NCBI RefSeq assembly: GCF_028285715.1
Contig: NZ_JANQOO010000033.1
Coordinates: 1-45,064, forward strand
Reading direction: 5' to 3'
DNA from: Ulvibacterium sp.
GTDB lineage: Bacteria > Bacteroidota > Bacteroidia > Flavobacteriales > Flavobacteriaceae
DNA: 45,064 bases
Shown: positions 3,836 to 41,241 of the stretch, piece by piece
Layout of the letters: each line of letters begins with the position of its first letter
How positions within the stretch are numbered: position 1 is the stretch's first letter
Translations under genes and position numbers: made by a program
Notes under the pieces: generated by a model
Told to the model about the DNA's origin: nothing
Seen by the model: the letters and a program-made list of their open reading frames with translations, nothing else
Databases searched by the model: none

Positions 3836-3850
3836 TTAACCTAGGGTAAA
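3836..3850 (+). promoter_or_regulatory. Candidate Crp/Fnr-type operator, site A
   Basis: The sequence TTAACCTAGGGTAAAT (3836-3851) is an imperfect palindrome TTAACC-TAG-GGTAAA centred on 3843. The 12-mer CCTAGGGTAAAT recurs exactly on the minus strand at site C (35059-35070) and with one change at site B (29149-29160). A perfect flavobacterial -7 box begins 29 bases downstream, which would place the centre close to -42, the classical activator position. It lies 54 bases before the start codon at 3905. The regulator is inferred, not shown. Confidence 0.6.
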
Positions 3851-3871
3851 TGATTCAAATCAAAGAGTCCA

Positions 3872-3879
3872 TAGCTTTG
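3872..3879 (+). promoter_or_regulatory. Flavobacterial -7 promoter element
   Basis: TAGCTTTG matches the Bacteroidetes housekeeping -7 consensus TAnnTTTG exactly. Transcription would start near 3886, about 19 bases before ATG 3905. No good -33 TTG is placed upstream, which fits an activator-dependent promoter using site A. Confidence 0.55.
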
Positions 3880-3904
3880 TCCAGTCCCTAATATAATACC
3901 ATTA

Positions 3905-4198
3905 ATGATGAAATCAATTTATTCAAGAGTTAAAAACGAATGGGAGGAGGGCTATTGGATATACGAAGGAATTTCAATCGTTGCTTTCACTACTTTTGGG
4001 GGAGTTCCGCTTTTTGAAGTATTATTCAATGACCATAGGATTTTCCAAACGGTACAAGTGCTTAATATTCTGATTGTATGTAGCGTAGTGGCCCCTATAA
4101 TCTTGGCCGTTCAAAAACCACGAATCGTGTTTCGTACTTTCGTGACATTACTTATTGTTAATATGGTGGAACTTATAATATTCAACTTTCAACTATGA
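3905..4198 (+). CDS. Small integral membrane protein, unknown function
   Basis: A 97-residue protein with a short charged N-terminus (MMKSIYSRVKNEWEEGYW) followed by about three hydrophobic segments, so it should sit in the inner membrane. Two ATGs lie in tandem at 3905 and 3908; either could be used. I do not recognise a family. It is the first gene behind site A and its -7 box, and leads by 90 bases into the rhomboid gene in the same direction, suggesting co-transcription with the membrane-proteolysis genes that follow. Confidence 0.65.
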   Translation: MMKSIYSRVKNEWEEGYWIYEGISIVAFTTFGGVPLFEVLFNDHRIFQTVQVLNILIVCSVVAPIILAVQKPRIVFRTFVTLLIVNMVELIIFNFQL

Positions 4199-4288
4199 AA
4201 AGATTTTCTGTCTATACCAGAACCATGAAGTTGAAGTTACCATTGCTTATGACATTAAGATAGAAATTAACTGTAAAAGTATAGTATT

Positions 4289-4981
4289 GTGATTCCATTG
4301 ACTGACACCGCCAAAGTTGAAACATTCTGTTGGATGAATTGGACCTTAATCGGTTTGAATATTATCATTTTCTTTTTGGTAGCTGGGATAGATATGGAAA
4401 AGTTGCAACTATTAATCTTATATTTTGGAATTGTGCCGGAGAATTTCAGGGTACTCCTGATACATGGAATGACAGAAAATTTAGGTTTGGCTGGATTGAC
4501 ACTTATCACCAGTCAATTCCTGCACGGCGGTCTTGGCCACCTTATAGGAAATATGTGGACCCTTTACATATTTGGTGACAATGTGGAAGAGCGAATGGGA
4601 AGTTGGGGATATCTGATTTTCTATCTGCTTTGTGGAGTAATCGCTGGATTGACCCATGTTTTTATCAACCCTGACTCTGCAGTACCTACAATTGGGGCAT
4701 CAGGTGCTATCTCGGGTGTCATGGGAGCTTATTTATTCCTTTTTCCCAAGAGTAAGGTTGTGTTTTTAATACCCTGGTTTGTTCCAATAGTGTTCATTCC
4801 ATCAATATTCTATTTAGCTCTATGGTTCCTTGGTCAATCCTTAGGTGGTAGTTGGCAGGTCCTTACTTCCGAAACAGGGGGTGTGGCCTTTTGGGCTCAT
4901 ATAGGTGGGTTTATTGGCGGAATATTGATTCATTGGATTTTCGTTTTGGGAAATCGACTAAGAACCAAGGTGAAATTTTAA
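4289..4981 (+). CDS. Rhomboid family intramembrane serine protease
   Basis: A 230-residue, six-membrane-segment protein that cleaves transmembrane helices within the bilayer. The diagnostic features are GHLIGNMW after the first long loop, the catalytic serine in GASG (Ser138) and the partner histidine in AHIGGFIGG (His204). I chose the GTG at 4289 because homologues usually begin MIPL.D.; the first in-frame ATG (4334) would remove that N-terminus. The next gene begins 24 bases downstream, so the two are probably one transcript. Substrates are unknown. Pairing with a Clp-fold serine proteinase suggests a membrane-protein quality-control role. Confidence 0.88.
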   Translation: MIPLTDTAKVETFCWMNWTLIGLNIIIFFLVAGIDMEKLQLLILYFGIVPENFRVLLIHGMTENLGLAGLTLITSQFLHGGLGHLIGNMWTLYIFGDNVEERMGSWGYLIFYLLCGVIAGLTHVFINPDSAVPTIGASGAISGVMGAYLFLFPKSKVVFLIPWFVPIVFIPSIFYLALWFLGQSLGGSWQVLTSETGGVAFWAHIGGFIGGILIHWIFVLGNRLRTKVKF

Positions 4982-5005
4982 AGAACTAATTAAAATCAAT
5001 ATACT

Positions 5006-5815
5006 ATGGAAGGTTTATCAGGGTTATTATGGATTTTTATTATCGTATCAGCCATACAGCCGGTTATTGCGCGGCAGTTACTTCAAGACGAAAGGCGAAA
5101 ATTGATACAAAAACTGGAAAAAGAGCAAAAGTCCAAGGTCATTGCCCTTATCCATCGTCAAGAAAGCATGGCCTTATTAGGCTTCCCCATGGTAAAGTAC
5201 ATCAACTTGGAAGATTCCGAGGAGGTTCTCAGGGCCATTGGAGCCACCAAACCTGACGAAACCATTGATTTTGTTTTACACACTCCTGGTGGATTGGTAC
5301 TGGCAGCAATGCAAATTGCCCGAGCCATTGAACAACATCCGGGCAAGGTAAGGGTCATTGTTCCGCATTATGCCATGTCCGGAGGCACCCTGATTTCTTT
5401 GGCTGCTGACGAAATCATCATGAGCCCCCATGCCGTACTGGGCCCCGTAGACCCACAACTGGGTAGCTTGCCCGCCCCCTCTTTGGTCAAGCTAAAAAAG
5501 GAAAAATCAATTGATCATATTGACGATAAGACCTTGATTATGGCGGACATGGCCGATAAGGCCATTCATCAACTGCAATCAGGTATCAAGGAAATCATGA
5601 CCTCCACTTATGGCGAAGAAAAGGCTGAAGAGATTTCCAATATGTTAACTGAAGGAAGATGGACACATGATTATGGCATAACCGCAAGATTTGCCAAGGA
5701 AATTGGTCTTAATGTAAGCACCGAAATTCCAAATGATGTCTTAGCACTCATGCAGATGTATAGGCAACCGACGAGGTTGGCAGTGCCTACGGTTGACTAT
5801 TTACAAAAAAAATAA
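5006..5815 (+). CDS. SDH-family Clp-fold membrane serine proteinase (SppA-like)
   Basis: A 269-residue protein with an N-terminal membrane anchor (residues 3-21) followed by a ClpP/crotonase-fold domain. HTPGGLVLAA (92-101) is the substrate-strand motif and AMSGGTLISLAADEI carries the presumed nucleophile Ser125, as in signal-peptide-peptidase-like and 'serine dehydrogenase proteinase' proteins. SPHAVLGPVDPQLG is also characteristic of the family. It would degrade peptides or membrane protein remnants at the inner membrane, which fits its place directly behind a rhomboid protease. The length is normal for the family. The catalytic lysine is not assigned with certainty. Confidence 0.85.
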   Translation: MEGLSGLLWIFIIVSAIQPVIARQLLQDERRKLIQKLEKEQKSKVIALIHRQESMALLGFPMVKYINLEDSEEVLRAIGATKPDETIDFVLHTPGGLVLAAMQIARAIEQHPGKVRVIVPHYAMSGGTLISLAADEIIMSPHAVLGPVDPQLGSLPAPSLVKLKKEKSIDHIDDKTLIMADMADKAIHQLQSGIKEIMTSTYGEEKAEEISNMLTEGRWTHDYGITARFAKEIGLNVSTEIPNDVLALMQMYRQPTRLAVPTVDYLQKK

Positions 5816-5835
5816 GTTACCTTAAAACCACCATT

Positions 5836-5850
5836 GGGGCATAATGCCCC
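5836..5850 (+). terminator. Short GC-rich hairpin between proteinase and patatin genes
   Basis: GGGGCATAATGCCCC can fold into a 5-6 bp stem with an ATAAT-centred loop, 20 bases behind the proteinase stop. No T-tract follows. It could weaken transcription into the patatin gene or act as a processing site. It shares GGGGCATAA with the hairpin at 172-200. Confidence 0.4.
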
Positions 5851-5872
5851 TACTTAAGATTGAAGATTAACC

Positions 5873-6640
5873 ATGCATAATTTGGGAATGGTATTCTCCG
5901 GAGGAGGGGTAAAGGGTGCAGCCCACATTGGAGTCCTTAAGGCCTTGGAGGAACATGACATAAAACCAACCTGTGTTGCCGGTACCAGTGCGGGAGCAAT
6001 GGCTGCAGCCTTTTACGCCTGTGGCTATAAGTCTGACGAAGTTCTGGGGTTAATGACAAGTAGGAATTTTTTAAAGTTCAGTTCCCTTTCATGGGCCAAG
6101 GCGGGTATGTTAGAACCGAAACTGTTCTTGAAGGTATTTGCTGACTTTTTTAGGGACAGGACATTTGAATCCCTGGATATCGAGTTGCATGTGGCTACAA
6201 CCAATATTGTGGAAGGTTCCCTAAGGGTTTTTACCAAAGGGCCCATTTTGAAGCCTCTACTGGCTTCTTGTGCCTTTCCCTTTATTTTTTCACCGGTTCC
6301 AATTGAAGAATCATTGTACTCCGATGGTGGGATCATCAATAATTTTCCTACCGAAAGCGTCGTGAAGCGTTGTAAAAATACTTTGGGTGTATACGTCAGT
6401 CCGTTACGTAAAATCACTAAAGAACAACTCAGGAATTCCATAGATGTGGCCGATCGTGCTTATAGGATATCAAACAGGTATGAATCCATGTCGAAGAGGC
6501 AACAATGTACCTGGGTCATTGAACCTCCGGAACTTGAGCATTATGGGACTTTTACCCTAAGCAAGATTAAGGAAATTTTTGAAATTGGATATACCTATGG
6601 CAACCAAATGGTAGAGCGCATACATTCGGATTTGGAATAG
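5873..6640 (+). CDS. Patatin-like phospholipase
   Basis: A 255-residue cytoplasmic lipid acyl hydrolase of the RssA/YjjU type. The oxyanion-hole glycines GGGVKG (10-15), the nucleophile elbow GTSAG (Ser39) and the aspartate of SDGG near residue 160 form the Ser-Asp dyad typical of bacterial patatins. There is no signal peptide. It follows the proteinase gene by 57 bases on the same strand and is probably the last gene of that unit. It likely releases fatty acids from phospholipids; the substrate is not determined by the sequence. Confidence 0.87.
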   Translation: MHNLGMVFSGGGVKGAAHIGVLKALEEHDIKPTCVAGTSAGAMAAAFYACGYKSDEVLGLMTSRNFLKFSSLSWAKAGMLEPKLFLKVFADFFRDRTFESLDIELHVATTNIVEGSLRVFTKGPILKPLLASCAFPFIFSPVPIEESLYSDGGIINNFPTESVVKRCKNTLGVYVSPLRKITKEQLRNSIDVADRAYRISNRYESMSKRQQCTWVIEPPELEHYGTFTLSKIKEIFEIGYTYGNQMVERIHSDLE

Positions 6641-6718
6641 GGCATACTTTCAAAATCATATACCCATGGCAACTATGGTTTCAAGTCAAATCACTTTTAA
6701 TTTAGGTGCAAATCGTTT

Positions 6719-6733
6719 TTTACCCAAGAATAA
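6719..6733 (+). promoter_or_regulatory. Candidate Crp/Fnr-type operator, site F (degenerate)
   Basis: TTTACCCAAGAATAAG (6719-6734) matches site C (TTTACCCTAGGATAAA) at 13 of 16 positions. It lies about 84 bases upstream of the start of the decayed PAP2 gene. No good -7 box sits at the expected 29-30 base spacing, so the promoter may have decayed with the gene. Confidence 0.4.
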
Positions 6734-6817
6734 GCCCTTTCATAATTTAGCTTCATACTAATTAGAGAGGACCACCAAGCTATAATTTTGGTTACTTCTT
6801 TCGACCCTTACAAAATT

Positions 6818-7695
6818 ATGAGGCCACATAACTTTGTCATCGCTTTTATCATGGCTTTTTTATCCTCTTTTTATTGTTTAGGCAAGTAAAGATTCAAAAA
6901 AATGATACCAAATGGGACAATTTCATTTACGATATAGGCTCTATATTTGGAGAAATTGGCTATTCTTCTATTCGTCCATTATATTAGAAAGGGGAACAAT
7001 TCCGAAACCTGGGTATTCTTGTGGCCGGAACCGTTGTCCCCTTCTTAATTGATGAAGATGTTCATAAGTGGATTGATGACTTCCGTGGTGATGTACCCTC
7101 GGTTATCAATGATTATGACATTGAATACGGAAACCCATCAAACAATTATGCTTTGACCGACTCCGTAATCCTTAAAAGACTTTTTACCAAAATGAGAGGC
7201 TGAGAAGAACAAGCGTTTAGTTGATATCGTCAACAAATGCAACCGGTTTACTTCAACAATTAGGTCAGTGTGCAGTCTAAAGGGCAAGGCCGAAGACCAA
7301 TAAAAGAGCTTACACCTTTGATCGTTGTTTAAATATCGAAAGAAAATCCTCTTTTGATTCTTTTCCTTCGGGCCATGCTATGCTCATCTTTCCCAAGGCC
7401 TGCGCCAATGGAAAAAAATTTAAAGACCTTTGGTTTAAAGTTGTGATATATAACGTTGGCTTAGTTCCTGTTGCGGCGCAGTTCATCGATTTGTTCGATT
7501 GAATAATGATGTTATCTTCGGCTCGATTGTGACTATCTTTATCGTTAATTCGATATATCGTTATCTCGAAAGGCGTTGCGACGAAAGATACAACACTTCG
7601 AAATCAAATATGTTGGATTGGACACCTACAATTCACCCAACCGGCTTGGGGTGATTGTGAATTTTCGAGATTGCGACTACGGAGAAAATCAATAA
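6818..7695 (+). pseudogene. Decayed PAP2-family membrane phosphatase
   Basis: Pieces of one protein can be read in order but in different frames. A signal-like start at 6818 soon hits a stop. An acidic-hydrophobic segment follows at 7021-7203. Then come RARPKT (7281-7298) and SFPSGHA (7359-7379), which are the first and second signature motifs of type 2 phosphatidic acid phosphatases. A DVIFGSIV segment at 7508 stands where the third motif (SR…H…SD.x.GS) belongs, though its Ser-Arg and His residues are lost. The C-terminal RLGVIVNF is at 7642 and the stop at 7693-7695. At least four frame changes and several stops separate the parts, so it cannot make a functional enzyme. Confidence 0.82.
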
Positions 7696-7717
7696 ATCAA
7701 GAAAAGAATCACTTATT

Positions 7718-8506
7718 ATGTTTAGTAATCAAGAGTTAAGTAAAGGTTGTACTCGTTGGATGATATATCTCTTTCTTTTGCCTTTTATTATATCAGCTCA
7801 AATCAACGAAAGTGATTCCATTACGTTTCGAACAAAACTTAGTTTGAGCGGTTTTTGGCAAGGGGGAAATGTCGAAACCCTAATTTTCAGGACAAAATCG
7901 GATGTCAGTTTTAGGACGGGCAAAAAATGGGTATTTAAAACCACCAATTCCTATGTTTATCAAGAATCTGACAGAGTAAAGTCTGATGAAGATCTTTTAA
8001 GTATGAATTTCATTTATTTCAACCCGGAACGAAGGATATACCCTTTTGCGCTAGGTATCATTAATACTGATTTTGCTAGGGATATAAACTTACGATATAA
8101 TTTTGGAATCGGAGGAACTTACCAAATTTTGAGGAAGAAAGAGCATTGGTTGAAACTTGCAATTAATGCGGGATATGAACAAACCGACTTTGCCAGTTCT
8201 GACTTCAACCGCCCGGAGTTTAACGGAACAAGTTCCATAAGCACTTTACGCGCAACGTTTTGGGTCAATGGAAAGTACGAACTATTGAAAAAAAAATTAG
8301 TGTTCGGTCATGAGAGCTATTTTCAGCCATCATTAGAACAGAGCAACAATTTTCGTTGGCAGGCCGACTTAAGCCTCGAGATGCCCGTTTGGGAATTTTT
8401 GAACGTCAAAATCAATTATTTGCACATTCATGAGAGTGTCGTAGTTGAAGAACAGAAGAAGGAAGACCGACTTTTGACAATAGGTTTTACTCTAAATACT
8501 CAATGA
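7718..8506 (+). CDS. DUF481-like outer membrane beta-barrel protein
   Basis: A 262-residue protein with an N-terminal signal sequence (hydrophobic core near residues 16-26, ending ISAQ) and alternating amphipathic strands rich in aromatic residues, ending in an even-spaced barrel-like segment. The pattern SLSGFWQGGNVETLIFRTKSD and the WVFKTTNSY strand recall DUF481 outer membrane proteins. Function in this family is unknown; a salt-stress or envelope role has been suggested for some members. It starts 22 bases after the PAP2 remnant and overlaps the convergent frameshifted gene by 7 bases. Family assignment is from pattern only. Confidence 0.6.
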   Translation: MFSNQELSKGCTRWMIYLFLLPFIISAQINESDSITFRTKLSLSGFWQGGNVETLIFRTKSDVSFRTGKKWVFKTTNSYVYQESDRVKSDEDLLSMNFIYFNPERRIYPFALGIINTDFARDINLRYNFGIGGTYQILRKKEHWLKLAINAGYEQTDFASSDFNRPEFNGTSSISTLRATFWVNGKYELLKKKLVFGHESYFQPSLEQSNNFRWQADLSLEMPVWEFLNVKINYLHIHESVVVEEQKKEDRLLTIGFTLNTQ

Positions 8507-8932: not shown

Positions 8933-9118
8933 GTTCTATTTTTTAATTCTTTGTTCTTATGCTTTGATAGCGACTCCTTGGTTCGTCTGATGAACCTATA
9001 AATTACACGATCTTCAAAAAAAGCTAAATCCCAATAAACCTTTTATTTCTAATTTTAATGGAAAATTTACATTATTTTAATGATTTACTTACGAAAAATT
9101 ATTTTTTGAATTGGTCCT

Positions 9119-9319: not shown

Positions 9320-9351
9320 ATAAATCCACCTCGTGGATACCTTCAATGATT

Positions 9352-9462
9352 TTAATTTTTCGATGACCGCTTCCTATTATTTACCCCTTCTAATGGAATC
9401 CAATATTTGGGAACACCATTAGTCAATTCAATAACCTCCCTATCATAAAAGGGAAGATATCC
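9352..9462 (-). other. In-frame open segment behind the next gene's stop codon
   Basis: Immediately after the stop codon at 9463-9465, the same minus-strand frame stays open for 36 codons, ending at 9352. It encodes a plausible peptide, including DREVIELTNGVPKYWIPLEG. This may be the tail of the upstream protein cut off by a new stop, or the remnant of another gene. No start codon is obvious. Confidence 0.3.
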
Positions 9463-17845: not shown

Positions 17846-17915
17846 ATTGATTGGTCATGATTATGTCATTCAATTTATATCTTCAATCCTTTCTAAAGTA
17901 TTTAAAATCAATAGG

Positions 17916-17930
17916 TATACCATAGAATAA
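17916..17930 (-). promoter_or_regulatory. Candidate Crp/Fnr-type operator, site E, upstream of nap
   Basis: On the minus strand, TTATTCTATGGTATAC (17930 to 17915) matches site B (TTAACCTATGGTAAAT) at 12 of 16 positions. Its core CTATGGTA is shared fully. The centre (17923) is about 78 bases upstream of the nap porin start codon. I see no good -7 box at the spacing found for sites A-D, so this is a weaker member. It could also serve the divergent gene at 18076. Confidence 0.45.
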
Positions 17931-20041: not shown

Positions 20042-21082
20042 ATGAAAACACAATTCTTAATTCTAATCATTGTTCCATTTGTTTTTGGATGTCGAGATAC
20101 TAAAAAAGTTGAAACAAAAGTAATCGAGATAGCTGCCATTAAGGGTCAGCAACTTACAGGAGTTACAGTGAGCAAAGAACGTATGTTTGTTAATTTTCCA
20201 CGTTGGAGAAAGGGCATTAAATACTCAGTAGCGGAAATAGACAAGAACAATACATTTAGAGCTTACCCAAGTCAAAAATGGAATACTTGGAAGACTGATA
20301 GTGCGATAAAAGATTCCGTTTTTATTGCGGTTCAATCAGTGGTTGCTTCCGACGGTCTTTTGTACGTCGTTGATACCAGAAACCCCGAATTCCAAGGTGT
20401 TATTGGAGCACCAATAATCTTTGTTTTTGACTTAAATACTGATGAGCACATTAACACCTACAGATTGCCCAACGAGAGTTTTCGCACAAACTCATATATT
20501 AATGATATCCGTATTGATGAAAAAAGAAAATATGCCTTCCTTACAGATTCGGGTAGCCCTGGGTTGCTGGTGTTAAACTTACGAACGGGAGATGTAAAAA
20601 GGGTTTTGGACAAACACCAATCTACAACAAGCGAATTTGATTTTTTGACCATTGATGGCCAACGATGGAATAGTATAGTCCACTCGGATGGAATAGCATT
20701 GGACATTGCACAAGACGAGCTATATTTTCATGCGCTGACAGGTTATAGTCTTTACGCTATTTCGGTTGAGAAATTGATAAATGGCACTAACAAAGAAATC
20801 GAGGGGGCATTGAAATTGATATGTAAGACAACAGCACCGGACGGGATGATAATACATGGGAATTTGTTGTATTTTGGGGATTTGGAACATCACAAGATTC
20901 TACAGTTGGATTTAAGAACCAAAAAAATGTCCGTTTTGATTGAGGGAGATGATGTGGCATGGGCGGATACCTTTAGCATTGAGAACAACGAATTGTACTA
21001 CACGAACTCAAGAATACATGAGGCAAACGGGAATATTTCCAACCTGATATTTAACGTAAACAAAATTGTTCTCTCAGATTGA
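20042..21082 (+). CDS. Major royal jelly/yellow-family lipoprotein
   Basis: A 346-residue protein with a lipoprotein signal (FVFGC, lipidated Cys17). The sequence follows the major royal jelly protein fold, a six-bladed beta-propeller: LTGVTVSKERMFVNFPRW near residue 40, DGLLYVVDTRNP near 110, NDIRIDEK…AFLTDSG near 155-175 and HSDGIALD near 220. Related proteins in bacteria are annotated as L-dopachrome tautomerase-related or gluconolactonase-like; the true substrate is unknown. A monocistronic gene with 146 bases in front and 790 gene-free bases behind. Family call is good, function open. Confidence 0.8.
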   Translation: MKTQFLILIIVPFVFGCRDTKKVETKVIEIAAIKGQQLTGVTVSKERMFVNFPRWRKGIKYSVAEIDKNNTFRAYPSQKWNTWKTDSAIKDSVFIAVQSVVASDGLLYVVDTRNPEFQGVIGAPIIFVFDLNTDEHINTYRLPNESFRTNSYINDIRIDEKRKYAFLTDSGSPGLLVLNLRTGDVKRVLDKHQSTTSEFDFLTIDGQRWNSIVHSDGIALDIAQDELYFHALTGYSLYAISVEKLINGTNKEIEGALKLICKTTAPDGMIIHGNLLYFGDLEHHKILQLDLRTKKMSVLIEGDDVAWADTFSIENNELYYTNSRIHEANGNISNLIFNVNKIVLSD

Positions 21083-21870
21083 TCTACCCAATTCGGAAGG
21101 TTTCGACAATCAGTTGATTTGATATTAAACCTATGTACATAAGCAGCTTGGCTAAGATTGAAAAGTCAGCTTTTACGTCAATGCTGCATATGCTTTAATT
21201 GCCACGAACCCGAGTTAAATGACAGAGAATTTATTAAGGTAGAATATTGGTTCCTCTTGACAAGTGGAATTAAGGACGTCCCAGCAGCTTCATAACCGAT
21301 ATCCATGATTTCATCAATTACGGTAAAGTCAAATACCCGACACCTTCCGCCTTCTGTGGAATCAATGTAAATATCTCATTGTTTTTATCATGGCTCCAGG
21401 TATTGGAAATGGCAATTCTAAGACAAAGACACAGGAGATAAATCATATTCCCTACCTTAAAACAATCTTTTAAACGGTTATCATTCGAGCCTATCAATAC
21501 TTCGCAATAATACCTGACGGAGGATGTTGGAAGGTTTTTTACCAGTCCTCCATCCGCGCAACGGAATTCTCAGATGGTAACAGGCTTAAAAACAAGTGAG
21601 ATGAACATTGAGGCTAGAACAGGTTCCCCGCATTTAATATTTGGTGTTGGCTTTATTCATGTTGGTGGCGGAAGGGTATATAAGGTATCTTTAAATCCTT
21701 AAAACGAATCGGAAATCTAGAGGTTTTAGGTGCTAAAGAATTATTATTTGGGGTAATCTTTTGATGAACCCGACATAAATATCCAAAAAAACAAAATTTG
21801 AATTTCTACTATTTTCAATTTGTCCATGGCATACTATAAAAGCACACTTCCTGTTAACTAACAAGAGGAT
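21083..21870. other. Gene-free region with a possible gene remnant
   Basis: Between the royal-jelly-family gene and the convergent MscS gene, no intact gene is seen. A 65-codon open stretch at about 21511-21702 on the plus strand lacks a good start, but its last 35 codons (…SEMNIEARTGSPHLIFGVGF…) read like a natural protein C-terminus, possibly an outer membrane strand. The rest has many stops in all frames. Confidence 0.4.
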
Positions 21871-23178
21871 TCATTTTAAGGAGGTGGGCAGCTCAAATAT
21901 CTCTAAATAGAAAAAGGGTAGCACAGCGATAAGATGATCAAAAATATCTGCCATAAGGGTTTCGTATTCTTCCCATTTCTTAGAAGCACTAAAGGCATAG
22001 ACTTCAACAGGCACTCCCTGGGTGGTCGGCTCCAATACACGGACCATAAGGGTCATTTCTTGATTAATCTTAGAATTGCTCTCTAAGTATCCCTGTATGT
22101 ACTTTCTAAAGAGACCTATATTGATAGGACCATTAAGGGCCAAGTCATTCATGGGGTCATTTGCAATATTTTGTGCAAAAGTTTCCAAAGATTCTAAGGA
22201 ATCCAAAAACTCTCGAATAATTGGGATTTTAGATATAGAATTCATATCCTGAGGTGTCAAAAACCTTATGCTTTTTTGACTTACGTGCATGGCTCTTTTA
22301 ATCCGTCTGCCCCCCGAATTTTGCATTCCCCTCCAATTCTTAAAAGAATCGGAAATCAGGGCATAAGTCGGTATCGTAGTAATTGTCATATCCCAGTTCT
22401 GTACTTTAACCGTGGCCAAAGTGATTTCAATGACCGAACCATCGGCACCGTATTTCTCAAAAGCAATCCAATCCCCAATGCGAACCATATCGTTAATGCT
22501 CACTTGTATACTGGCTACCAAGCCGAGTATGGTATCCCTAAAAATCAACAGTAAAACAGCGGAAGCTGCTCCCAAGGCTGTAAAAAATTTCCAAATTGTA
22601 GTATCAGTGATTATGGCAAAAATGGTGAGTATTCCAAGAATCCATACAAAGATCATTACTACTTGGATGTAACTATCCAAAGGTTTATCCTGTAATCGCT
22701 GTAAGGTTCTTAAATAGTCCCTAAGGCTCATCAAAAGTTTTCTAATAACCGTTATGACAAGTAAAACCCCTAAAATCATTAGGGTTTTTTGAGCCAACGT
22801 GTCCAAATAATCAAAGTCATAGAAAATTATGGGCAACGTTTCGAAAAGAAGTATCAACGGTATAACATGTGCCAATGAGCTGGGAACCTTATGGTCAACA
22901 AAAAAATTATCCATCTTGGTCTTTGTCCTTTTTGCTATACGACCGGAAATCATCCGAAATATTTTGTTTAGGATAAAATCAATGACAGAAACCGCCAAGA
23001 GAACGGCAACCAATAATAACAACATGTTCACATAGGATGCAGAGGTCGGTTCCATACCTCTTTTTAGGAGATAATCGTAAAATAAACGTTCATATGTCAT
23101 ATCGATACTTTGCATGTTATTCAACAATTTTTTTGCTTCATCTGTATAGATGATTTCTTGTACTTGATGTCGTTTCAT
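21871..23178 (-). CDS. MscS-family mechanosensitive ion channel (YbdG-like)
   Basis: A 435-residue inner membrane protein with about five hydrophobic segments followed by the MscS beta-domain. The pore helix-like stretch FFTALGAASAVLLLIFRDTILGLVASIQ, interrupted here for brevity by its core AASAVLLLIFRDTILG, and the following NDMVRIGDWIAFEKYGADG identify the family. Such channels open under membrane tension and release solutes during hypo-osmotic shock. The length is close to E. coli YbdG (415). The ATG at 23178 gives a 25-residue N-terminal extension before the first amphipathic segment; a later start is possible. The upstream 88-codon frame overlaps it by 41 bases. Confidence 0.85.
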   Translation of the reverse strand: MKRHQVQEIIYTDEAKKLLNNMQSIDMTYERLFYDYLLKRGMEPTSASYVNMLLLLVAVLLAVSVIDFILNKIFRMISGRIAKRTKTKMDNFFVDHKVPSSLAHVIPLILLFETLPIIFYDFDYLDTLAQKTLMILGVLLVITVIRKLLMSLRDYLRTLQRLQDKPLDSYIQVVMIFVWILGILTIFAIITDTTIWKFFTALGAASAVLLLIFRDTILGLVASIQVSINDMVRIGDWIAFEKYGADGSVIEITLATVKVQNWDMTITTIPTYALISDSFKNWRGMQNSGGRRIKRAMHVSQKSIRFLTPQDMNSISKIPIIREFLDSLESLETFAQNIANDPMNDLALNGPINIGLFRKYIQGYLESNSKINQEMTLMVRVLEPTTQGVPVEVYAFSASKKWEEYETLMADIFDHLIAVLPFFYLEIFELPTSLK

Positions 23179-23404
23179 GGGTTTTTAAGTTCATAGTGAC
23201 GCAAATCTTTTTGTCCACCCTATGCAAAATCCTATCTAATCCCTTAAAGACATTTTCTGCCAATTTGGGTTCTTTTACATAGAGCATGGATCGAGTATTT
23301 GTTCTTGGTCCTTCAATGAGTTTGAGAGTTTCATTTTTTACGAGTTCGTATTCATCGGCCTTCTTTTTGACCTCGGAATCGGAATGTATGTTTCCATTGA
23401 GCAA
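23138..23404 (-). CDS. Doubtful small ORF overlapping the MscS gene start
   Basis: An 88-codon frame with only a TTG start (23404). Its first 60 residues (SEVKKKADEYELVKNETL…) look like a natural charged helical protein, but the last 14 codons overlap the channel gene in another frame. It may be a small real gene, the 3' remnant of a larger one, or a fortuitous frame. No family is recognised. Confidence 0.25.
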   Translation of the reverse strand: MLNGNIHSDSEVKKKADEYELVKNETLKLIEGPRTNTRSMLYVKEPKLAENVFKGLDRILHRVDKKICVTMNLKTHETTSSTRNHLYR

Positions 23405-23904
23405 GGTATTTATGTAATTTTGTGAAAGTGCACCACTCTACAGACTATAATCCACTTTAGTAGCTTCTAGACATTTTCTTGCTACCATACTCTTAATGTC
23501 AATTTGGATGCAGCTATTTACTATTTTTTGCTTCCATAGTCCCAATTTCCCTGTCTTTGGAAAGAATTTTAAAATAACACTAGCCCCTTCATCTTTGCCA
23601 ATGAAATGAGAAATACCAAGTATAAAATACATCTAATATTCCATATTAAATTTTCCATTTTAAAGTTTGTATTATTTAGTTGTTCTACCAGCGATATACC
23701 TGTAACAATGCTTGAGAAAAACTTATGTATGTTATGTCGATTTCCAATAGCAAGGTACAAAGAATCGAATATGCGAAATTTAACTTATGCTAAAAACAGA
23801 TTATAACCTTAGACCTCACTAGTTTCTACAATTGTATGCAACTAGGTCTTTCAAATACAATCTGAGGTCACTGGCAAATAAACAGAAAGGTTATTTCCTT
23901 GTAT
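23405..23904. other. Gene-free stretch in front of the AarF remnant
   Basis: AT-rich with stops in every frame. If the AarF/UbiB pseudogene once had its N-terminal half here, I cannot recognise it. No operator or repeat seen. Confidence 0.4.
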
Positions 23905-24768
23905 AAAATGAGTATCTCAACACATCAAGATTTCGGAAATCAATGGCTTTGAAGCGGATGAAATTAACCCTATGTCGTTAGCAAGAGTAGCAGTAAATCA
24001 ATTTACGGAACAGATATTGGTCCAGGGCTCTTCCACGCCGATTCGCATCCTGGAAATATCAGGGTTATTCCAGAACTTGGAAAGTTGAGTTTTAGGATTG
24101 GTTATGACGGGTCTTTTAAAGTCAGGTAATTGGGAGTCCTTAGGAGGGTGATTGGTGGATTTATCCAGCGTGATTCTTGAAAAATGATTCTTGTTCCGGA
24201 AAAATCGCAATCCAATCGGACATCAAGAACCGCCGAAAACCTGAGAAAGACCTTTAGTTCTTCATGGGGGGAACAGGAAATTCACTAATCCAAAAGGTTG
24301 AGTTAAAACCTGTCCTTAACCGCCTTAATATGATTCTTCCCGACAACCAAATCGTTCTCCCCATTATTTCTCAATCAGTATCCATGGAATATTTATGTTC
24401 GGGATTGAGCTTAACTGGATCCTGAATTCAATATTTCCAAGGACTTTCGTCCCCATATTTATAAATCCTCCCTAATGCTATCCGGGCCCAAACACCTTCT
24501 TTCGAGTTGTCGGGCATGTTTTAGGAGCTTCGACTATCTGATGAATACCTCTCTGAATATTTGGTATATAGATAAAGAAACTAGAAAAATAAAGCTAGTC
24601 ATAAATCACCAACTCAACAATTTTACTGAATCTAATTCGATATCGGATAGATTGGTAAATCAATTGTTATTGACCATTACTATTAGAGGCCTAACCATTG
24701 GTTCGGCTATTTTCGTATTGTATGGAAGCCTCCAAAAATTAATTGGATTCTCATTTTACGAGCGGTGA
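23905..24768 (+). pseudogene. Decayed AarF/ABC1/UbiB-family kinase
   Basis: The C-terminal half of an ABC1/UbiB atypical kinase can be read in pieces. EYLN then IKISEINGFEADEIN lies around 23910-23970. VAVNQFTEQIL follows, and after a frame change comes LFHADSHPGNI (24028-24060), the family's catalytic signature (usual form FFHADPHPGN). LDPEFNISKD follows near 24420, and 24475-24768 gives the C-terminal domain ending in two hydrophobic segments (TIRGLTIGSAIFVLYGSL). Several frameshifts and stops separate the parts, and the N-terminal kinase lobe is missing. Intact members act in quinone biosynthesis or lipid handling. It is not functional as it stands. Confidence 0.8.
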
Positions 24769-24864
24769 AATCTACCATTTCAGCTCTATTCTATCAGTTT
24801 TTTCTTAGCAATCTCAATGTGACGGCAAAAAAACTTTAGGAAAATGGTTTCCGTAAATCCTCTC

Positions 24865-26373
24865 TTAAATCAAAGGGGCAAAAAGCCGAAGTGTACGTTC
24901 CGCAATTTTGCTGATGTGACTACGCTTTTCCCATTTTTCTCGAGAAATCCTTTTGGCACCTTGAAGGTCCTTATAAAAAGCACCCCTCAACTTACTTGAA
25001 AAGGCTTCATCGAAAATCAAGGCATTAATCTCAAAATTAAGCTCAAAGCTCCTTTGGTCAAAATTTGCGGTCCCTATCATTGAGAGCAAGTTGTCACAGA
25101 CCATCGTTTTAGCATGTACAAACCCTTTTTCATAGCGATAAATTTCAACCCCAATGTCAAGAAGTTCCCCATAAAATGATTTTGAAACGATATTTACCAC
25201 CTTTGAATCTGACTTTCCAGGAACCAATAACTTAACTTTGACCCCGCTCAGTTTTGCTATTTTAAGGGCATTGATGATACCCTTTTCAGGCACAAAATAG
25301 GGTGTAGTAATCAATACTTCTTCTTTGGCCAAGATAATCGCCTGCATCATAGAATACATAATATCAGGATGGTCAGAATCAGGACCACTGGCAACTATTT
25401 GAACGATTTGTCGGCTTACAGGTTCTTTGGACAGGTCAATCCTTGGGAAAAAATCGGGGCTTACCCCAATGTTCTGATCGGAGCAAAAGTTCCAATCCGC
25501 TAAGAACACCCGTTGAAGCAAGAGCACAGCACTACCCTCAATCCTTAAATGGGTGTCCCGCCAAAATCCGTAGTTTTCATTTGTATTAACATACCTATCG
25601 GAGACGTTTATACCTCCTACATAGCCTACCGTTCCGTCCACCACAATTATTTTGCGATGGTTTCTGTAATTTATTCGGGTCGTGAACAAATGCCACCATA
25701 GTTTATAAAATGGGAAAACTTCCACTCCCGATTTTTTTAGTGACCGAACAAAACCACGGCTTATTCCTTGACTACCAAAATCGTCGTAAATGAATCTAAC
25801 TTGGACACCTTCCTCCGCCTTTGTTTTCAGTATTTCTGCTATTTCCTGACCAATACCTATTTCTTCGTAGATATAGTATTCAATATGTATATGATGTTTT
25901 GCGGTTTTCAAAGATTGCAGGACCTCCTCAAATTTCTGTTCTCCGTTAATCAAAAGATCTGTTGAGTTACGTACAGTTAATAGGTTTTCTAAGTTCTTAA
26001 GATGTGCGAGTCGAAAGAAATGCTTCAAATGCTCTCTATTTTTAAGGAGCATCTCTTCTGAAAATTTACCAAGTCGGACTTCCAATTCAGGAAAAGAATT
26101 ATTGTCCACTACCAGCTTCTTACTATAAATCTTCCGGGACCTATAATTTATCCCCAGAGAGAAATAGATGATCATTCCTAAAACAGGATAGAGAATGACC
26201 AAGAAAGTGTAGGCCAATGCCTTAGAAGTTGATTCGGTATTGCGAATGATAATCACAATGGTGACAAAGGCCGCGATATAAAGCATTATGTAAGGAAAAA
26301 AGTCCAAATCTATAATAGTCCTGGTTAAAAATAAGAAAAGTAAAGGATGCCGTAAGAACTCAAAAAATGGCAT
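24865..26373 (-). CDS. cls: Cardiolipin synthase
   Basis: A 502-residue membrane enzyme that condenses two phosphatidylglycerols to cardiolipin. Two N-terminal hydrophobic segments (about 28-45 and 55-75) precede two phospholipase D domains with HKD motifs: HRKIIVVDGTVGYVGGINV near residue 235 and HAKTMVCDNLLSMIGTANFD near 415. Length (about 480-500) and order fit ClsA-type enzymes. It is the last gene of the minus-strand USP-HdeD-hydrolase-Cls run, 61 bases after the hydrolase gene. A candidate operator (site B) heads that run. Cardiolipin raises fit membrane stress or anaerobic adaptation. Confidence 0.93.
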   Translation of the reverse strand: MPFFEFLRHPLLFLFLTRTIIDLDFFPYIMLYIAAFVTIVIIIRNTESTSKALAYTFLVILYPVLGMIIYFSLGINYRSRKIYSKKLVVDNNSFPELEVRLGKFSEEMLLKNREHLKHFFRLAHLKNLENLLTVRNSTDLLINGEQKFEEVLQSLKTAKHHIHIEYYIYEEIGIGQEIAEILKTKAEEGVQVRFIYDDFGSQGISRGFVRSLKKSGVEVFPFYKLWWHLFTTRINYRNHRKIIVVDGTVGYVGGINVSDRYVNTNENYGFWRDTHLRIEGSAVLLLQRVFLADWNFCSDQNIGVSPDFFPRIDLSKEPVSRQIVQIVASGPDSDHPDIMYSMMQAIILAKEEVLITTPYFVPEKGIINALKIAKLSGVKVKLLVPGKSDSKVVNIVSKSFYGELLDIGVEIYRYEKGFVHAKTMVCDNLLSMIGTANFDQRSFELNFEINALIFDEAFSSKLRGAFYKDLQGAKRISREKWEKRSHISKIAERTLRLFAPLI

Positions 26374-29032: not shown

Positions 29033-29144
29033 GATAAATGTTTTATCGTTATTGAATGGTCGTTGTGGTTTGAGTCCATCTGGTCTCGCCCACTTCTATT
29101 TTAATTCTATAATGCTAATGTAGGATAGTTTTCCCGCTTCCTAG

Positions 29145-29159
29145 TTAACCTATGGTAAA
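29145..29159 (-). promoter_or_regulatory. Candidate Crp/Fnr-type operator, site B
   Basis: TTAACCTATGGTAAAT (plus strand 29145-29160) differs from site A by one base in 16. Its centre is 29152. A -7-like box, TACATTAG on the minus strand (29122-29115; 7 of 8 including the free positions), starts 30 bases downstream of the centre toward the universal stress protein gene, matching the spacing at sites A, C and D. Confidence 0.6.
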
Positions 29160-29220
29160 TAATGCCTATGGCTTCTAAAAGAAAACCCCTTCATTATTTG
29201 GTTAGTTCACTTTCAATGAT

Positions 29221-34960: not shown

Positions 34961-35059
34961 ATGGTTGTATTTTCATGATTTCCTTGGAGGGAAACCAAGG
35001 TTGATTTACACTTTGGAGGTTAATCCGAGTGCAAGGTATAATAAGCTCATGGAGAGAAA

Positions 35060-35074
35060 TTTACCCTAGGATAA
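35060..35074 (-). promoter_or_regulatory. Candidate Crp/Fnr-type operator, site C
   Basis: TTTACCCTAGGATAAA (plus strand 35060-35075), centred on 35067. Read on the minus strand it is TTATCCTAGGGTAAAT and shares the exact 12-mer CCTAGGGTAAAT with site A. A -7-like sequence TACCTTGC (minus strand 35038-35031) starts 29 bases from the centre toward the TolC operon. Toward nrfH, TAAAATTG (35094-35101) starts 27 bases away, so the site could also act on the nrf side. Confidence 0.6.
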
Positions 35075-35099
35075 AAAGTATTAATCCTTATGTTAAAAT

Positions 35100-35876: not shown

Positions 35877-35887
35877 ATCCAATTGAG

Positions 35888-37387: not shown

Positions 37388-37418
37388 TTGGAAACTGCCA
37401 AACTACCGTTATTTGTCT

Positions 37419-40400
37419 ATGAAATTTTTATATCGTTTTTTCTCTTCCCCTCAATTAGCCCTAATACTATTGCTTGTTTTTGCATTGGCCATGGGCACGG
37501 CCACGTTTATTGAAAATGACTTCGGAACAGGTACAGCTTGGTCAAAAGTATACAATGCGATTTGGTTCGAATTGGTCATGGCAGGATTAGGGCTGTGTTT
37601 TATTGCCAATATCTTTAAATATCGTCTTTGGCGCAAAGAAAAATGGTCAATTCTACTGTTTCATTTGTCCTTTATTATAATCCTAATTGGGGCTGGAATT
37701 ACTAGGTACCATTCCTATGGGGGAATCATGCGAATACGGGAGGGATCTTCGTCCAATATTATCATTTCGGATAAAAACTATTTTCGGGTGGATTTTGAAG
37801 ACAAAGGAATAAACAAATATTGGGAAACGCCTGTTTCATTTTACTCTGGAATGGGAACCAATTTTTCCATGATATTCGATTGGAAAGACCACCCTGTTAA
37901 AATTACTTACCGAAAGTACATTCCGGATGCGCGACCGGAAATAGTGGAAGATCAGGAGAATGGGTATCCCCTTTTAAAAGTGGTAGTAACTACCGGAAAT
38001 GGTAGGGAAACCCTTTTTTTAAAGAAAGGGGAAATTGAAGAGCTTGGAAGGTTTAAACGGAAATTGGGATTTGAGGCAGAGGGTAGCAATCTTATCAATC
38101 TGTTCGAATCCAATGGTACATTCCAAATACATTCCACTGAACCCTTGGATTTCTTTGTCATGGCCGATCAAAGTGCTGGAGTAATCAAAGCGGATACATT
38201 ACAAACGATTAAGCTTAAAAACCTATACCGCTTAGGGGATATTTCTTTTATTCCTCTTTCCTTTCATCCCAAAGGGCGAATAGAATTGGTTCCCAAAGGT
38301 GAAAACAATCTTCAAAATGACAAGACCTTAGACGATGTATTATTGGTTAATGTAGAAAGGAATGGTATACAAAAGGAAGTAGCCCTACTTTATCGTGAAG
38401 GCCATCTTCCACCCACACATGGTGTTTCCATAAATGGTTTAGGTTTGAAGCTCTCTTATGGGGCCAAACCAATTGACTTACCGTTTTTCATTAAACTTAG
38501 GGATTTCCAATTGGAGCGCTATCCTGGTTCCGAAAGTCCCTCGTCATATGCTAGCGAGGTTGTTGTGGTTGAGGACGAAAGAGCAACATCCTACCGTATT
38601 TTTATGAATAACGTCCTCGACTATGGGGGATACAGGTTCTATCAAGCTAGTTACGATACGGATGAAAAGGGAACCGTGCTTTCCGTCAATCATGATGTGG
38701 CCGGAACTTATATCACCTATCTTGGCTATTTTTTAATGATGACAGGTATGTTCTTCACGTTGTTCGGAAAAAAATCCAGGTTTATATTGATCAATCAAAG
38801 ATTGCGTCAACTCAAGGCAACAAAAAAGCGAATATCGGCCACCTTGATTATCGGCCTATTTTCATTGACGTCTTTTGCCCAAAAAGATATACCCATAGAC
38901 GTTTTGGTTGCCCAACAACAAGTGGAGCGTCAACATTCTGATCTATTTGGACGTTTAATGGTCCAAGATTTAGATGGACGCATTAAACCAGTAAACACCT
39001 TGGCATCCGAATTTTTAAGAAAGGTGTCGCGTAGGCCCTACTTCAAATTTGAACTAGGGCAGCAAAAGATAAGGTTGGATGCCAATCAAGTGTTTTTAAC
39101 AATGCATGTGGCTCCTAAGGCCTGGCAACACATTCCGATTATTAAAATAGATGTCAAAAAGGGAAGGGGCTTTTTCGAAAATCTAAAAGTCAACAAGGAA
39201 GGCCTGATTGCTTTCAATGATCTAATTGACCTCAAAGGCGAATATGTATTATCAAAAAAAGTGCAGGAGGCTAACGCCAAAAAGCCTGCTGAACAAAGCG
39301 AATTTGATAAAGAGATACTTAAGGTAGATGAACGTTTCAACATTTTGTTTAACATTTTTTCAGGAAATTATTTGAAAATTTTTCCAAATCGTCTGGATGA
39401 GAATGATACTTGGTTCAGTTATAATCACCACTTTTCGGATTTCCCTTCTGAGGATGCCAGGTTTATTGAGACCATCATGCCCAATTACTTTGAGGACATC
39501 ATTGAGAGAAATTGGAAGGCAGCCTCTGAAAAGCTTTCATATATCAGTACTTATCAAAGTACTTTGGGGGCTCATATCATACCCAGCACAAAAAGAAGGG
39601 AGGCGGAAATATGGTACAATGCCATGAACCTTAACTTTTGGTTATTTCAGGCCTTCTTTACTATTGGATCTATACTATTGGTTTTGGTCCTTGTCAGGAT
39701 ATTCAAGAATAACCGGTTGTTAATCCTCATTTGGAACATCATGGTTTTAGTTGTGCTTGTGGGTTTTCTTGTATTTAGCGGTAACATTCTATTACGTTGG
39801 TTTGTGGCAGGGCACGCTCCTTGGAGCAACGGCTACGAAATGTTGGTGTTTGTAGCTTGGGTATTGATGCTTTGCGGACTCATGACCTTCCGAAAGTCTG
39901 ATTTTGCATTGCCCTTGGCTACGTTGTTCTCTGGTTCATTGCTTCTTGTGAGCTATCTTGATTGGCTAAACCCTGAAATCACCAATTTAATGCCTGTACT
40001 TAAGTCCTTCTGGTTAAAAGTACATGTAGCTACCATCGTAAGCAGTTATGCTCCTCTTGCACTTTCTGCGGTTATTGGTCTTATGGCCTTAATACTGATG
40101 ATTTTAAGGACCGACTCTACACACAAGACTATTGGTCTTAAAATTCGGGAACTGACCTATATTAATGAAATTTCAATGACCATTGGACTTTTTGTGTTAT
40201 CTGTTGGCACCTTTTTAGGGGCTGTTTGGGCCAATGAATCCTGGGGGCGATATTGGGCATGGGACCCTAAGGAAACATGGGCCCTTATTTCCATTATCGT
40301 GTATGCCGTTGTATTGCATTTACGTTTTATTCCAAGTCTTAGATCCGATTACGTATTAAACCTAGCTAGTGTCATAGCTTTTGGTTCCATAATAATGACT

Positions 40401-40568
40401 TCTTTTGGAGTGAACTACTATTTATCTGGATTGCATAGTTATGCCGCTGGGGATCCTTTGCCCATTCCTAAATTTATCTATGTGATATTGGTAGTAGTAC
40501 TGGCTATAGCTACCCTAGCATATATAAAAAGGAAGAAAAAGCGCGAAAAAACGATATGTGCTGAATAA
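37419..40568 (+). CDS. ccsBA: Fused cytochrome c synthetase CcsBA (ResB-CcsA; NrfI-like)
   Basis: A 1049-residue inner membrane protein that carries haem to the periplasm and attaches it to CxxCH or CxxCK. The N-terminal part is ResB/CcsB (helices near 8-30 and 45-80, then a large periplasmic domain to about 430). The C-terminal part is CcsA with GHAPWSNGYEM near 806 and the haem-handling WWD signature WGRYWAWDPKETW near 941. ATG 37419 is two codons into a longer TTG-started frame. It directly follows nrfHA, as nrfI does in Wolinella, and so probably matures NrfA's CxxCK haem; it may also serve the haems of the Nap cytochromes. Confidence 0.93.
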   Translation: MKFLYRFFSSPQLALILLLVFALAMGTATFIENDFGTGTAWSKVYNAIWFELVMAGLGLCFIANIFKYRLWRKEKWSILLFHLSFIIILIGAGITRYHSYGGIMRIREGSSSNIIISDKNYFRVDFEDKGINKYWETPVSFYSGMGTNFSMIFDWKDHPVKITYRKYIPDARPEIVEDQENGYPLLKVVVTTGNGRETLFLKKGEIEELGRFKRKLGFEAEGSNLINLFESNGTFQIHSTEPLDFFVMADQSAGVIKADTLQTIKLKNLYRLGDISFIPLSFHPKGRIELVPKGENNLQNDKTLDDVLLVNVERNGIQKEVALLYREGHLPPTHGVSINGLGLKLSYGAKPIDLPFFIKLRDFQLERYPGSESPSSYASEVVVVEDERATSYRIFMNNVLDYGGYRFYQASYDTDEKGTVLSVNHDVAGTYITYLGYFLMMTGMFFTLFGKKSRFILINQRLRQLKATKKRISATLIIGLFSLTSFAQKDIPIDVLVAQQQVERQHSDLFGRLMVQDLDGRIKPVNTLASEFLRKVSRRPYFKFELGQQKIRLDANQVFLTMHVAPKAWQHIPIIKIDVKKGRGFFENLKVNKEGLIAFNDLIDLKGEYVLSKKVQEANAKKPAEQSEFDKEILKVDERFNILFNIFSGNYLKIFPNRLDENDTWFSYNHHFSDFPSEDARFIETIMPNYFEDIIERNWKAASEKLSYISTYQSTLGAHIIPSTKRREAEIWYNAMNLNFWLFQAFFTIGSILLVLVLVRIFKNNRLLILIWNIMVLVVLVGFLVFSGNILLRWFVAGHAPWSNGYEMLVFVAWVLMLCGLMTFRKSDFALPLATLFSGSLLLVSYLDWLNPEITNLMPVLKSFWLKVHVATIVSSYAPLALSAVIGLMALILMILRTDSTHKTIGLKIRELTYINEISMTIGLFVLSVGTFLGAVWANESWGRYWAWDPKETWALISIIVYAVVLHLRFIPSLRSDYVLNLASVIAFGSIIMTSFGVNYYLSGLHSYAAGDPLPIPKFIYVILVVVLAIATLAYIKRKKKREKTICAE

Positions 40569-41103
40569 GGGTTTTAAACAAACAAGTGTAAATATTTGGA
40601 GTACCACTTTATTAGTTGAGCGAACCCCTATGAACAATATAAACTATGTATTTAAAATAAAAGGGAACAACAAAGATTATTGAACGTTTGGATAGAATCC
40701 TTCAGCAAATGGAGAACGCCCAGGCTGATATTCAATCGCGTCAACACTTATTATAAAAAAGTGCGACATATATGCATGGATTAAAGTTCATTTCAGAATC
40801 TATTTCAAAGTTAAACCGATGCAATAAGATCAATTTCCCAGTAACAAGGGCATCATGGAAAACCAGATTTAATTATTCTATGGTTTTTCATATTTTTAAG
40901 GAAAATATTTTTTGACACGATTTGTTACAATTACTGCTGAAACGACCATGACCAGAAATCGTATGGATTTCCATTACATTATTTCACTTTTTGTTATGTT
41001 AATATGATAGAGAAATATCTCCCTAAATGAAAATTATTTTTTTATGCCGTCAAATAGCTAGTATTTCGTATATAAGTCTACTTCTCTTCAAAATGCATAT
41101 AAT

Positions 41104-41137
41104 AAAATCATTCACTGATTAATCAATGAATGATTTT
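41104..41137. repeat. 34-base near-perfect palindrome
   Basis: AAAATCATTCA (41104-41114) is matched by TGAATGATTTT (41127-41137). The centre TGATTAATCA (41116-41125) is itself a perfect palindrome, leaving one mismatched pair. As RNA it would form an AT-rich hairpin followed by T's, weakly terminator-like; as DNA it could be an operator for a dimeric or tetrameric regulator. It lies 137 bases before the hydrolase start codon. Confidence 0.6.
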
Positions 41138-41177
41138 TAGAAATGGTGACAAAAAGTTTTATCTATAATCAACATTT

Positions 41178-41192
41178 TTTATCATAGGATAA
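41178..41192 (+). promoter_or_regulatory. Candidate Crp/Fnr-type operator, site D
   Basis: TTTATCATAGGATAAG (41178-41193), centre 41185. On the minus strand, TTATCCTATGATAAAA matches the site C sequence TTATCCTAGGGTAAAT at 13 of 16 positions. A -7-like box GAACTTTG (41215-41222; one mismatch to TAnnTTTG) begins 30 bases downstream of the centre, as at the other sites. The hydrolase start codon is 81 bases from the end of the site. Confidence 0.55.
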
Positions 41193-41204
41193 GACTTTCA
41201 AAAA

Positions 41205-41241
41205 ATTATCTTGAGAACTTTGTTGCAAATAACAAGATAAT
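41205..41241 (+). repeat. Inverted repeat flanking the -7-like box
   Basis: ATTATCTTG (41205-41213) and CAAGATAAT (41233-41241) form a perfect 9-bp inverted repeat with a 19-base spacer that contains the -7-like sequence of the hydrolase promoter. It could be a repressor site over the transcription start or a hairpin in the 5' leader. Confidence 0.5.

What the first reader, a model, noticed from the sequence alone, without database searches (positions are those of the whole stretch)
3836..41222. A shared palindromic operator marks six transcription units, often at the activator position
Six non-coding sites fit TTAwyCTAkGGTAAAw: A 3836-3851, B 29145-29160, C 35059-35075, D 41178-41193, E 17915-17930 and F 6719-6734. 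A and C share an exact 12-mer (CCTAGGGTAAAT). The sites stand in front of the rhomboid unit, USP-HdeD-hydrolase-Cls, TolC-HlyD-ABC, the Asp-type hydrolase, the nap operon and the PAP2 pseudogene. At A, B, C and D a sequence resembling the flavobacterial -7 box TAnnTTTG starts 29-30 bases from the centre (perfect at A), which puts the centre near -42, as for class II Crp/Fnr activators. I know of no published consensus like this; the matching spacing on both strands makes chance less likely. E and F are weaker and lack the spacing.
Basis: partly seen in the sequence, partly recalled or inferred. Interest (0 to 1): 0.85.

Follow-up and report, generated by a model that had tools for sequence, protein, structure and literature searches.

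The report
Crp/Fnr operators at fixed promoter distance
A small set of stress and membrane genes in a flavobacterium and its relatives carries the same palindromic switch, at one fixed distance from the promoter and close to the gene of one Crp/Fnr-type regulator, so a complete local control circuit can be proposed from sequence alone.

Summary
Sites A-D are real; E and F are not supported. The operator is an 18-bp palindrome, TTTTAnCnTAnGnTAAAA. In the 5.0-Mb genome its core TTAnCnTAnGnTAA occurs at 10 places, 7 on the small contigs C30 and C31 (the window), p about 1e-11; the reversed control at 30. All 7 island operators have a -7-type box starting exactly 29.5 bases from the centre; the 3 others do not. 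The Crp/Fnr protein at 44490 has close relatives in 3 of 397 family genomes, the three whose fetched loci show strong composite sites. Three further named genomes found through the protein alone add 7 operators, 7 of 7 with the box. Of six more distant homologous genes, five have an operator just after crp and one has none. With the published box position (-12 to -5; PMC9723704, passages) the centre falls at -41.5, the class II position. Targets look like envelope, stress and redox genes, not nap. Many boxes are TAnnTTGY (the published SM5 type) and not sigma-A TAnnTTTG; one operator serves both. Binding, activation and signal are untested.

The parts
3834..3851 (+). operator A, before 97-aa ORF-rhomboid-SppA-like-patatin
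   Evidence: score 20.6; box at 29.5
3872..3879 (+). -7 type box of A, TAGCTTTG (sigma-A type)
29143..29160 (-). operator B, before USP-HdeD-DUF6051-Cls
   Evidence: score 19.7; USP promoters of L138 and L139 have the same operator
29115..29122 (-). box of B, TACATTAG
35059..35076 (-). operator C, before TolC-HlyD-ABC
   Evidence: score 25.9
35031..35038 (-). box of C, TACCTTGC (SM5 type)
41177..41194 (+). operator D, before alpha/beta hydrolase 41274-42137
   Evidence: score 20.1; hydrolase promoters of L140, L141, L142 have the same operator
41215..41222 (+). box of D, GAACTTTG (sigma-A type)
23778..23795 (-). operator X2, before a decayed copy of the DUF6134 gene
   Evidence: score 18.3; decayed gene 36% over 103 aa to the C30 copy
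23750..23757 (-). box of X2, TACCTTGC (SM5 type)
42152..42169 (+). probable operator X3, box TAATTTGG at 42190-42197; next intact gene is Dps, 465 bases on
   Evidence: score 17.0; box; target uncertain
1846..1863 (-). doubtful operator X1 upstream of a trypsin/PDZ protease (645-1667)
   Evidence: score 12.3; box TATTATTT does not fit NAnnTT
44490..45062 (+). Crp/Fnr-type regulator, cut by the contig end
   Evidence: PF00027; 68-78% identical relatives beside operators in five loci

Best explanation
The palindrome is the operator of the Crp/Fnr-type protein encoded at 44490 (a homodimer by analogy with its family). The dimer binds centred at -41.5, where no separate -33 element is seen, and helps RNA polymerase bound at the -12 to -5 box, as in class II activation. 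It controls a small local set: the rhomboid unit, USP-HdeD-Cls, TolC-HlyD-ABC, an alpha/beta hydrolase and DUF6134 genes here; SDR-ALDH, a 152-aa family, HdeD and an ABC1-type kinase in relatives. Shown: operator, exact spacing, orientation to genes, linkage and co-occurrence with this regulator. Inferred: that this protein binds, that binding activates, the start of transcription, and a stress signal.
For: Core pattern at 10 places genome-wide, 7 on C30/C31 (p 9.5e-12), 7 of 7 with the box at 29.5 against 0 of 3 elsewhere. Matrix made from A-D alone and blind to the box: 14 positions scoring 16 or more in C30 and L138-L142, 14 of 14 with NAnnTT at 29.5; below 16, 2 of the 28 listed have it; random positions 6.6%. 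Protein at E <= 1e-45 in 3 of 397 family genomes, the same three with strong composite sites. Same gene types under the operator in different genomes: USP, hydrolase, SDR, 152-aa. In five close loci an operator starts 2-6 bases after the crp stop, and in five distant ones just after crp, where the last 20 residues compared stay 75-90% identical while the first 130 fall to 28-42% (four with a correct translation).
Against: No binding or expression data. The 16-mer alone is weakly enriched; with one mismatch the composite in the own genome is below its reversed control (12 against 19). L181, a distant homologue (E 4e-36), has no operator, nor have two plasmid homologues of 35% identity. One strong operator with a fitting box lies in G614 without a close relative of the regulator, inside an open frame of 199 aa. 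C30:22143 scores above 14 without a box. L176 has a box that does not fit NAnnTT.
Confidence: 0.82

Rival explanations
1. The same protein is a repressor at these sites: it binds at -41.5 and blocks polymerase.
For: Class II position overlaps the promoter; orientation and spacing alone do not fix the sign. BT4338 of Bacteroides works both ways (PMC6989115, passages).
Against: No -33 TTG/TTTG is seen between operator and box, and the operator's own TAAAA lies at that place; many boxes depart from sigma-A consensus, as expected of activator-dependent promoters; a repressor would not need one exact spacing.
Confidence: 0.12
2. Another regulator, not the Crp/Fnr protein, binds the palindrome; the crp gene is only a neighbour.
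For: No binding data; G614 shows one strong operator without a close relative of the protein.
Against: Presence in the same 3 of 397 genomes; three more genomes found through the protein had the operators; homologues down to 37-61% identity in other families keep an operator right after crp; geometry 5-4-5 as in other Crp/Fnr sites.
Confidence: 0.05
3. Chance resemblance of AT-rich promoter sequence.
For: The loose 16-mer is only mildly enriched; family-wide single operators are rarer than the reversed control (54 places against about 97, my hand sum).
Against: 7 of 10 genome-wide places in 1.35% of the genome, 7 of 7 boxes against 0 of 3; repeated in genomes reached through the protein alone. 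E and F, which look like chance, fail the tests.
Confidence: 0.01

Closest known systems
Class II Crp/Fnr activation (E. coli CRP and FNR; recalled)
   Same: Two half sites of 5 bases around 4, centre at -41.5, box from -12
   Different: Half site TTAnC with a conserved central TA, not TGTGA or TTGAT; flavobacterial boxes
HcpR2 of Bacteroides, Thermotogales and others (PMC1274295, passages)
   Same: 5-4-5 geometry and C....G core: GTAACnnnnGTTAC
   Different: Half site GTAAC; predicted targets are mainly hcp; this regulator was not compared with HcpR2 by tree
BT4338 (Crp/Cur) of B. thetaiotaomicron (PMC6989115 and PMC3878776, passages)
   Same: Bacteroidota Crp-type regulator, palindrome with central nTAn: wwwTATGTTnTAnAACATAwww
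   Different: Half site TATGTT; global sugar regulon; here a local stress-type set
SM5 promoters of Flavobacterium psychrophilum (PMC9723704, passages)
   Same: TAnnTTGY box, here at the place where -12 to -5 is expected
   Different: Passages read describe LPS, amino-acid scavenging and gliding genes, and no Crp/Fnr operator (terms Crp and Fnr: 0 occurrences)
3dn7, cyclic nucleotide binding regulatory protein (PDB)
   Same: Best match to the regulator profile over most of its length (E 1.9e-20)
   Different: Only the deposited name was seen; no operator known to me

Membership tests
Crp/Fnr superfamily regulator | cNMP-binding type N-terminal domain | tested here: met
   PF00027, E 2.6e-10, above cut-off
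Crp/Fnr superfamily regulator | C-terminal helix-turn-helix | tested here: inconclusive
   No Pfam HTH hit; alignment to 3dn7 to its end; structure model too poor (pLDDT 44)
FNR (Fe-S oxygen sensor) | Four conserved cysteines and NCBIfam Fnr model | tested here: not met
   One invariant cysteine in six relatives; Fnr model 22.7 bits against cut-off 228
E. coli CRP equivalog | NCBIfam CRP model at its cut-off | tested here: not met
   Weak match in 3 of 6 members, best E 8.8e-05; cAMP binding not testable
Class II activated promoter | Operator centre 29.5 bases from first base of -10 type box | tested here: met
   14 of 14 box-blind positions; 7 of 7 in own genome
Class II activated promoter | Regulator-dependent transcription from a start 41-42 bases from the centre | not testable with these tools
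   No expression data
SM5 promoter | TAnnTTGY box | tested here: met
   Met by C, X2, both C30 sites, the L138 and L139 sites, L140 SDR, L141 152-aa, L142 SDR and HdeD; not by A, B, D, other hydrolase sites, ABC1
SM5 promoter | Mapped start that puts the box at -12 to -5 | not testable with these tools
   Position taken over from PMC9723704

The most novel reading that the evidence does not exclude
TAnnTTGY boxes (SM5) do not need an alternative sigma factor but are an activator-dependent form of the sigma-A promoter: one Crp/Fnr dimer at exactly -41.5 drives polymerase from TAnnTTTG or from the one-base-shorter TAnnTTGY, and one promoter type (SDR) has TAACTTGC in L140 but CAACTTTG in L178 with operator and distance unchanged. 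The circuit would then explain a promoter class of flavobacteria without a known sigma factor, and give a compact, portable activator-promoter pair.
Probability: 0.35. Interest if true: 0.75.

Novelty: new variant of a known kind. Interest (0 to 1): 0.68.

Why it matters
For Bacteroidota the passages I read give operators for only a few Crp/Fnr proteins. Here operator, promoter distance, regulator and targets can all be named from sequence and predict each other across families, so one gel shift and one reporter assay would decide. It couples an activator to the SM5 box, for which the passages read name no sigma factor, and it shows a self-contained regulon that stays beside its regulator in a few genera.

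Tried and rejected
E and F as members: rejected on score and spacing. A family-wide regulon: in 120 family genomes the single operator has 54 places against about 97 for the reversed control (hand sum); in 397 family genomes 345 have no exact composite (52 have one or more). SppA-like protein as a guide to related islands: no relative in genome contigs, 15 of 395 phylum genomes with a match; the five SppA loci among the ten fetched showed no composite above 14. Loci fetched for single hits: G079 nothing above 14; G614 one strong operator (23.4) with TACGTT at 29.5 but inside an open frame of 199 aa and no Crp homologue in the 16 kb; G702 a weaker operator (12.8) with a good box, not pursued; G001 (same genus) one site inside an open frame of 165 aa. 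Structure prediction of the regulator: mean pLDDT 44, so no fold search was run. Plasmids: two homologues of 35% identity, no operator. SDR in the own assembly: none at E <= 1e-30. Papers: searches gave in their listings no paper with this operator or pairing; they list only part (15 of 27, 10 of 891, 10 of 250), so absence from print is not shown, and most subscription journals are not held. Papers were seen as listings, abstract starts or passages; none was read whole. In one search my frame for the L178 protein was wrong, so it is left out of the identity figures.
Full report
What was checked. The window is a whole contig (C31, 45,064 bases) of a 5.0-Mb genome in 31 contigs. Sites A-D exist where stated. 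As a loose 16-mer the motif is only mildly over-represented (21 hits against 11.25 expected, 1 of 100 shuffles as high). With a position weight matrix the picture sharpens: in C30 plus C31 nine places exceed 14 bits against 0.42 expected in Markov sequences; the matrix was built on six of the nine, and one of the nine (C30:22143) has no box. E and F fail (scores -1.9 and 5.3).

Genome-wide test. TTAnCnTAnGnTAA occurs at 10 places in the whole genome, the reversed pattern at 30. Seven of the ten lie on C30 or C31, 1.35% of the sequence (binomial p 9.5e-12; the pattern was shaped on A-D and the C30 sites, so this p is optimistic). All seven have NAnnTT starting 29.5 bases from the centre on one strand; none of the other three has. 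With the box in the pattern (N22, TAnnTT) the own genome has 6 exact places, all on C30 or C31, against 0 for the reversed control. With one mismatch allowed the total is 12 against 19 for the control, so only near-perfect sites carry information.

Tests on sites not used to set up the motif. (a) The two C30 sites were found by operator alone and have TAACTTGC and TAACTTGT at 29.5. (b) Among 397 family genomes 52 have an exact composite; apart from the own genome (6) the most are 3, in G704 and G115. I fetched G704, G651 and three others; matrix scanning gave 5 composite sites in 19 kb for G704 and 2 in 1 kb for G651 in gene direction. Both loci encode a protein 68% and 73% identical to the window's Crp/Fnr protein. 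(c) That protein, sought in 397 family genomes, is present at E <= 1e-45 in exactly G000, G651 and G704 (the profile was built from these three). A matrix made from A-D only and blind to the box gives 14 positions scoring 16 or more in C30 and L138-L142; all 14 have NAnnTT at 29.5 on at least one strand, 11 of 14 TAnnTT; of the 28 lower positions listed 2 have NAnnTT (seven best per locus listed, my count). Random positions show it in 1327 of 20000. Nine of the 14 (C30, L138, L139, L140) owe nothing to the box in their discovery; L138 and L139 are close relatives, so the effective number is smaller.

Distant relatives. A class sample of 395 genomes returned six with a match at E <= 1e-35: the own genome and five others with six genes. 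Near the four genes of E 1e-64 to 1e-69 (L176-L179, 47-61% identical) and the one of E 4e-40 (L180, 38%) an operator-like palindrome stands just after crp: 9-11 bases after the stop in L176, L177, L179 and L180, 15 bases after the end of the match in L178, with scores 13.6-26.3. At the box position are TAACATTG, TACTTTCG, CAACTTTG, CACCTTTG and TATTTTTA; four of the five fit NAnnTT. The next gene resembles an SDR in L177 and L178 and looks like one in L180 from its first codons. The sixth gene (L181) has no operator nearby. In the five close loci an operator begins 2-6 bases after the crp stop.

Geometry. In F. psychrophilum the sigma-A box TAnnTTTG and the SM5 box TAnnTTGY lie at -12 to -5 (PMC9723704, passages). 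A first base at -12 puts the operator centre at -41.5, the class II position (E. coli value recalled). Predicted leaders: A 21, B 78, C 66, D 47 bases (my arithmetic). No separate -33 box is seen; the operator's own TAAAA lies there.

Two kinds of box. Hydrolase promoters carry GAACTTTG (D), CAACTTTG (L140, truncated gene), GAATTTTG (L141) and GAATTTTG (L142, before an internally deleted copy). USP, SDR, 152-aa, HdeD and DUF6134 promoters of the window's group carry TAnCTTGy, except the window's B (TACATTAG); the weaker L142:10909 has TAATTTAC. The SDR promoter is TAACTTGC in L140 but CAACTTTG in L178. One operator at one distance thus goes with both box types, which is easiest to explain if one holoenzyme reads both; this is inference.

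Targets. Window: 97-aa ORF-rhomboid-SppA-like-patatin (A), USP-HdeD-DUF6051-Cls (B), TolC-HlyD-ABC (C), hydrolase (D), a decayed DUF6134 gene (X2). C30: USP fragment-HdeD and DUF6134. Relatives: USP, 152-aa family, SDR-ALDH, hydrolase, HdeD, ABC1-type kinase. Envelope, lipid, aldehyde or redox stress is my inference; nap and nrf are neighbours and, as far as tested, not targets.

The regulator. PF00027 domain; nearest solved sequence 3dn7; far below the cut-off of NCBIfam's Fnr model; one invariant cysteine in six relatives. The ligand is unknown. The last 20 residues compared stay 75-90% identical in L176, L177, L179 and L180 while the first 130 fall to 28-42%.

A related case. G115 has two composite hits 1.1 kb apart, weaker by the matrix (13.7 and 9.3), with boxes TAATTTTA and TACATTTA, and two Crp/Fnr-like genes of 25-29% identity within 2.7 kb.

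Limits. Everything is sequence evidence. The contig ends inside crp; its last 99 bases recur, reverse-complemented, at the start of C30, so the operator predicted after crp cannot be read here.

Verdict. A real, self-contained operator-promoter set with class II geometry, most likely read by the linked Crp/Fnr protein, with a half site that the paper searches named above did not show: a new variant of a known kind.

Noticed in passing
window 44966-45064 and C30 (L018) 1-99: The last 99 bases of the window (crp 3' end) recur exactly, reverse-complemented, at the start of C30 and then diverge: the contigs stop at a repeat or an assembly branch inside crp.
   Followed up: partly
window 2-136, + strand: This frame reads like the C-terminal end of the aldehyde dehydrogenase of the SDR-ALDH operon in L139 and L142 (by eye); no SDR at E <= 1e-30 in the assembly, so part of the island may be missing.
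   Followed up: partly
window 21082-24865 and C30 (L018) 344-658: Decayed genes: patatin (21082-21871), DUF6134 (about 23200-23510, -), ABC1-type kinase (23924-24831), and a USP fragment on C30; they look like decaying duplicates of units that are intact elsewhere in the island.
   Followed up: partly
G115 C1:1277072-1278186 (L189): Two composite hits of the form TTAACATATGTTAA / TTAACATAGGTTAA with boxes at 29.5 beside two Crp/Fnr-like genes of 25-29% identity: perhaps a second regulator with the same geometry.
   Followed up: partly
L139:10616-11095, L141:8217-8675, L138:10653-10973, L142:10897-11433: A 152-aa type family under the operator in four loci; the two members scanned (L139, L141) have no Pfam match.
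   Followed up: no
whole genome G000: TTAnCnTAnGnTAA is rarer outside the island than its reversed control is in the whole genome (3 against 30 places): avoidance of stray sites, or mere rarity of CTAG-like cores.
   Followed up: no
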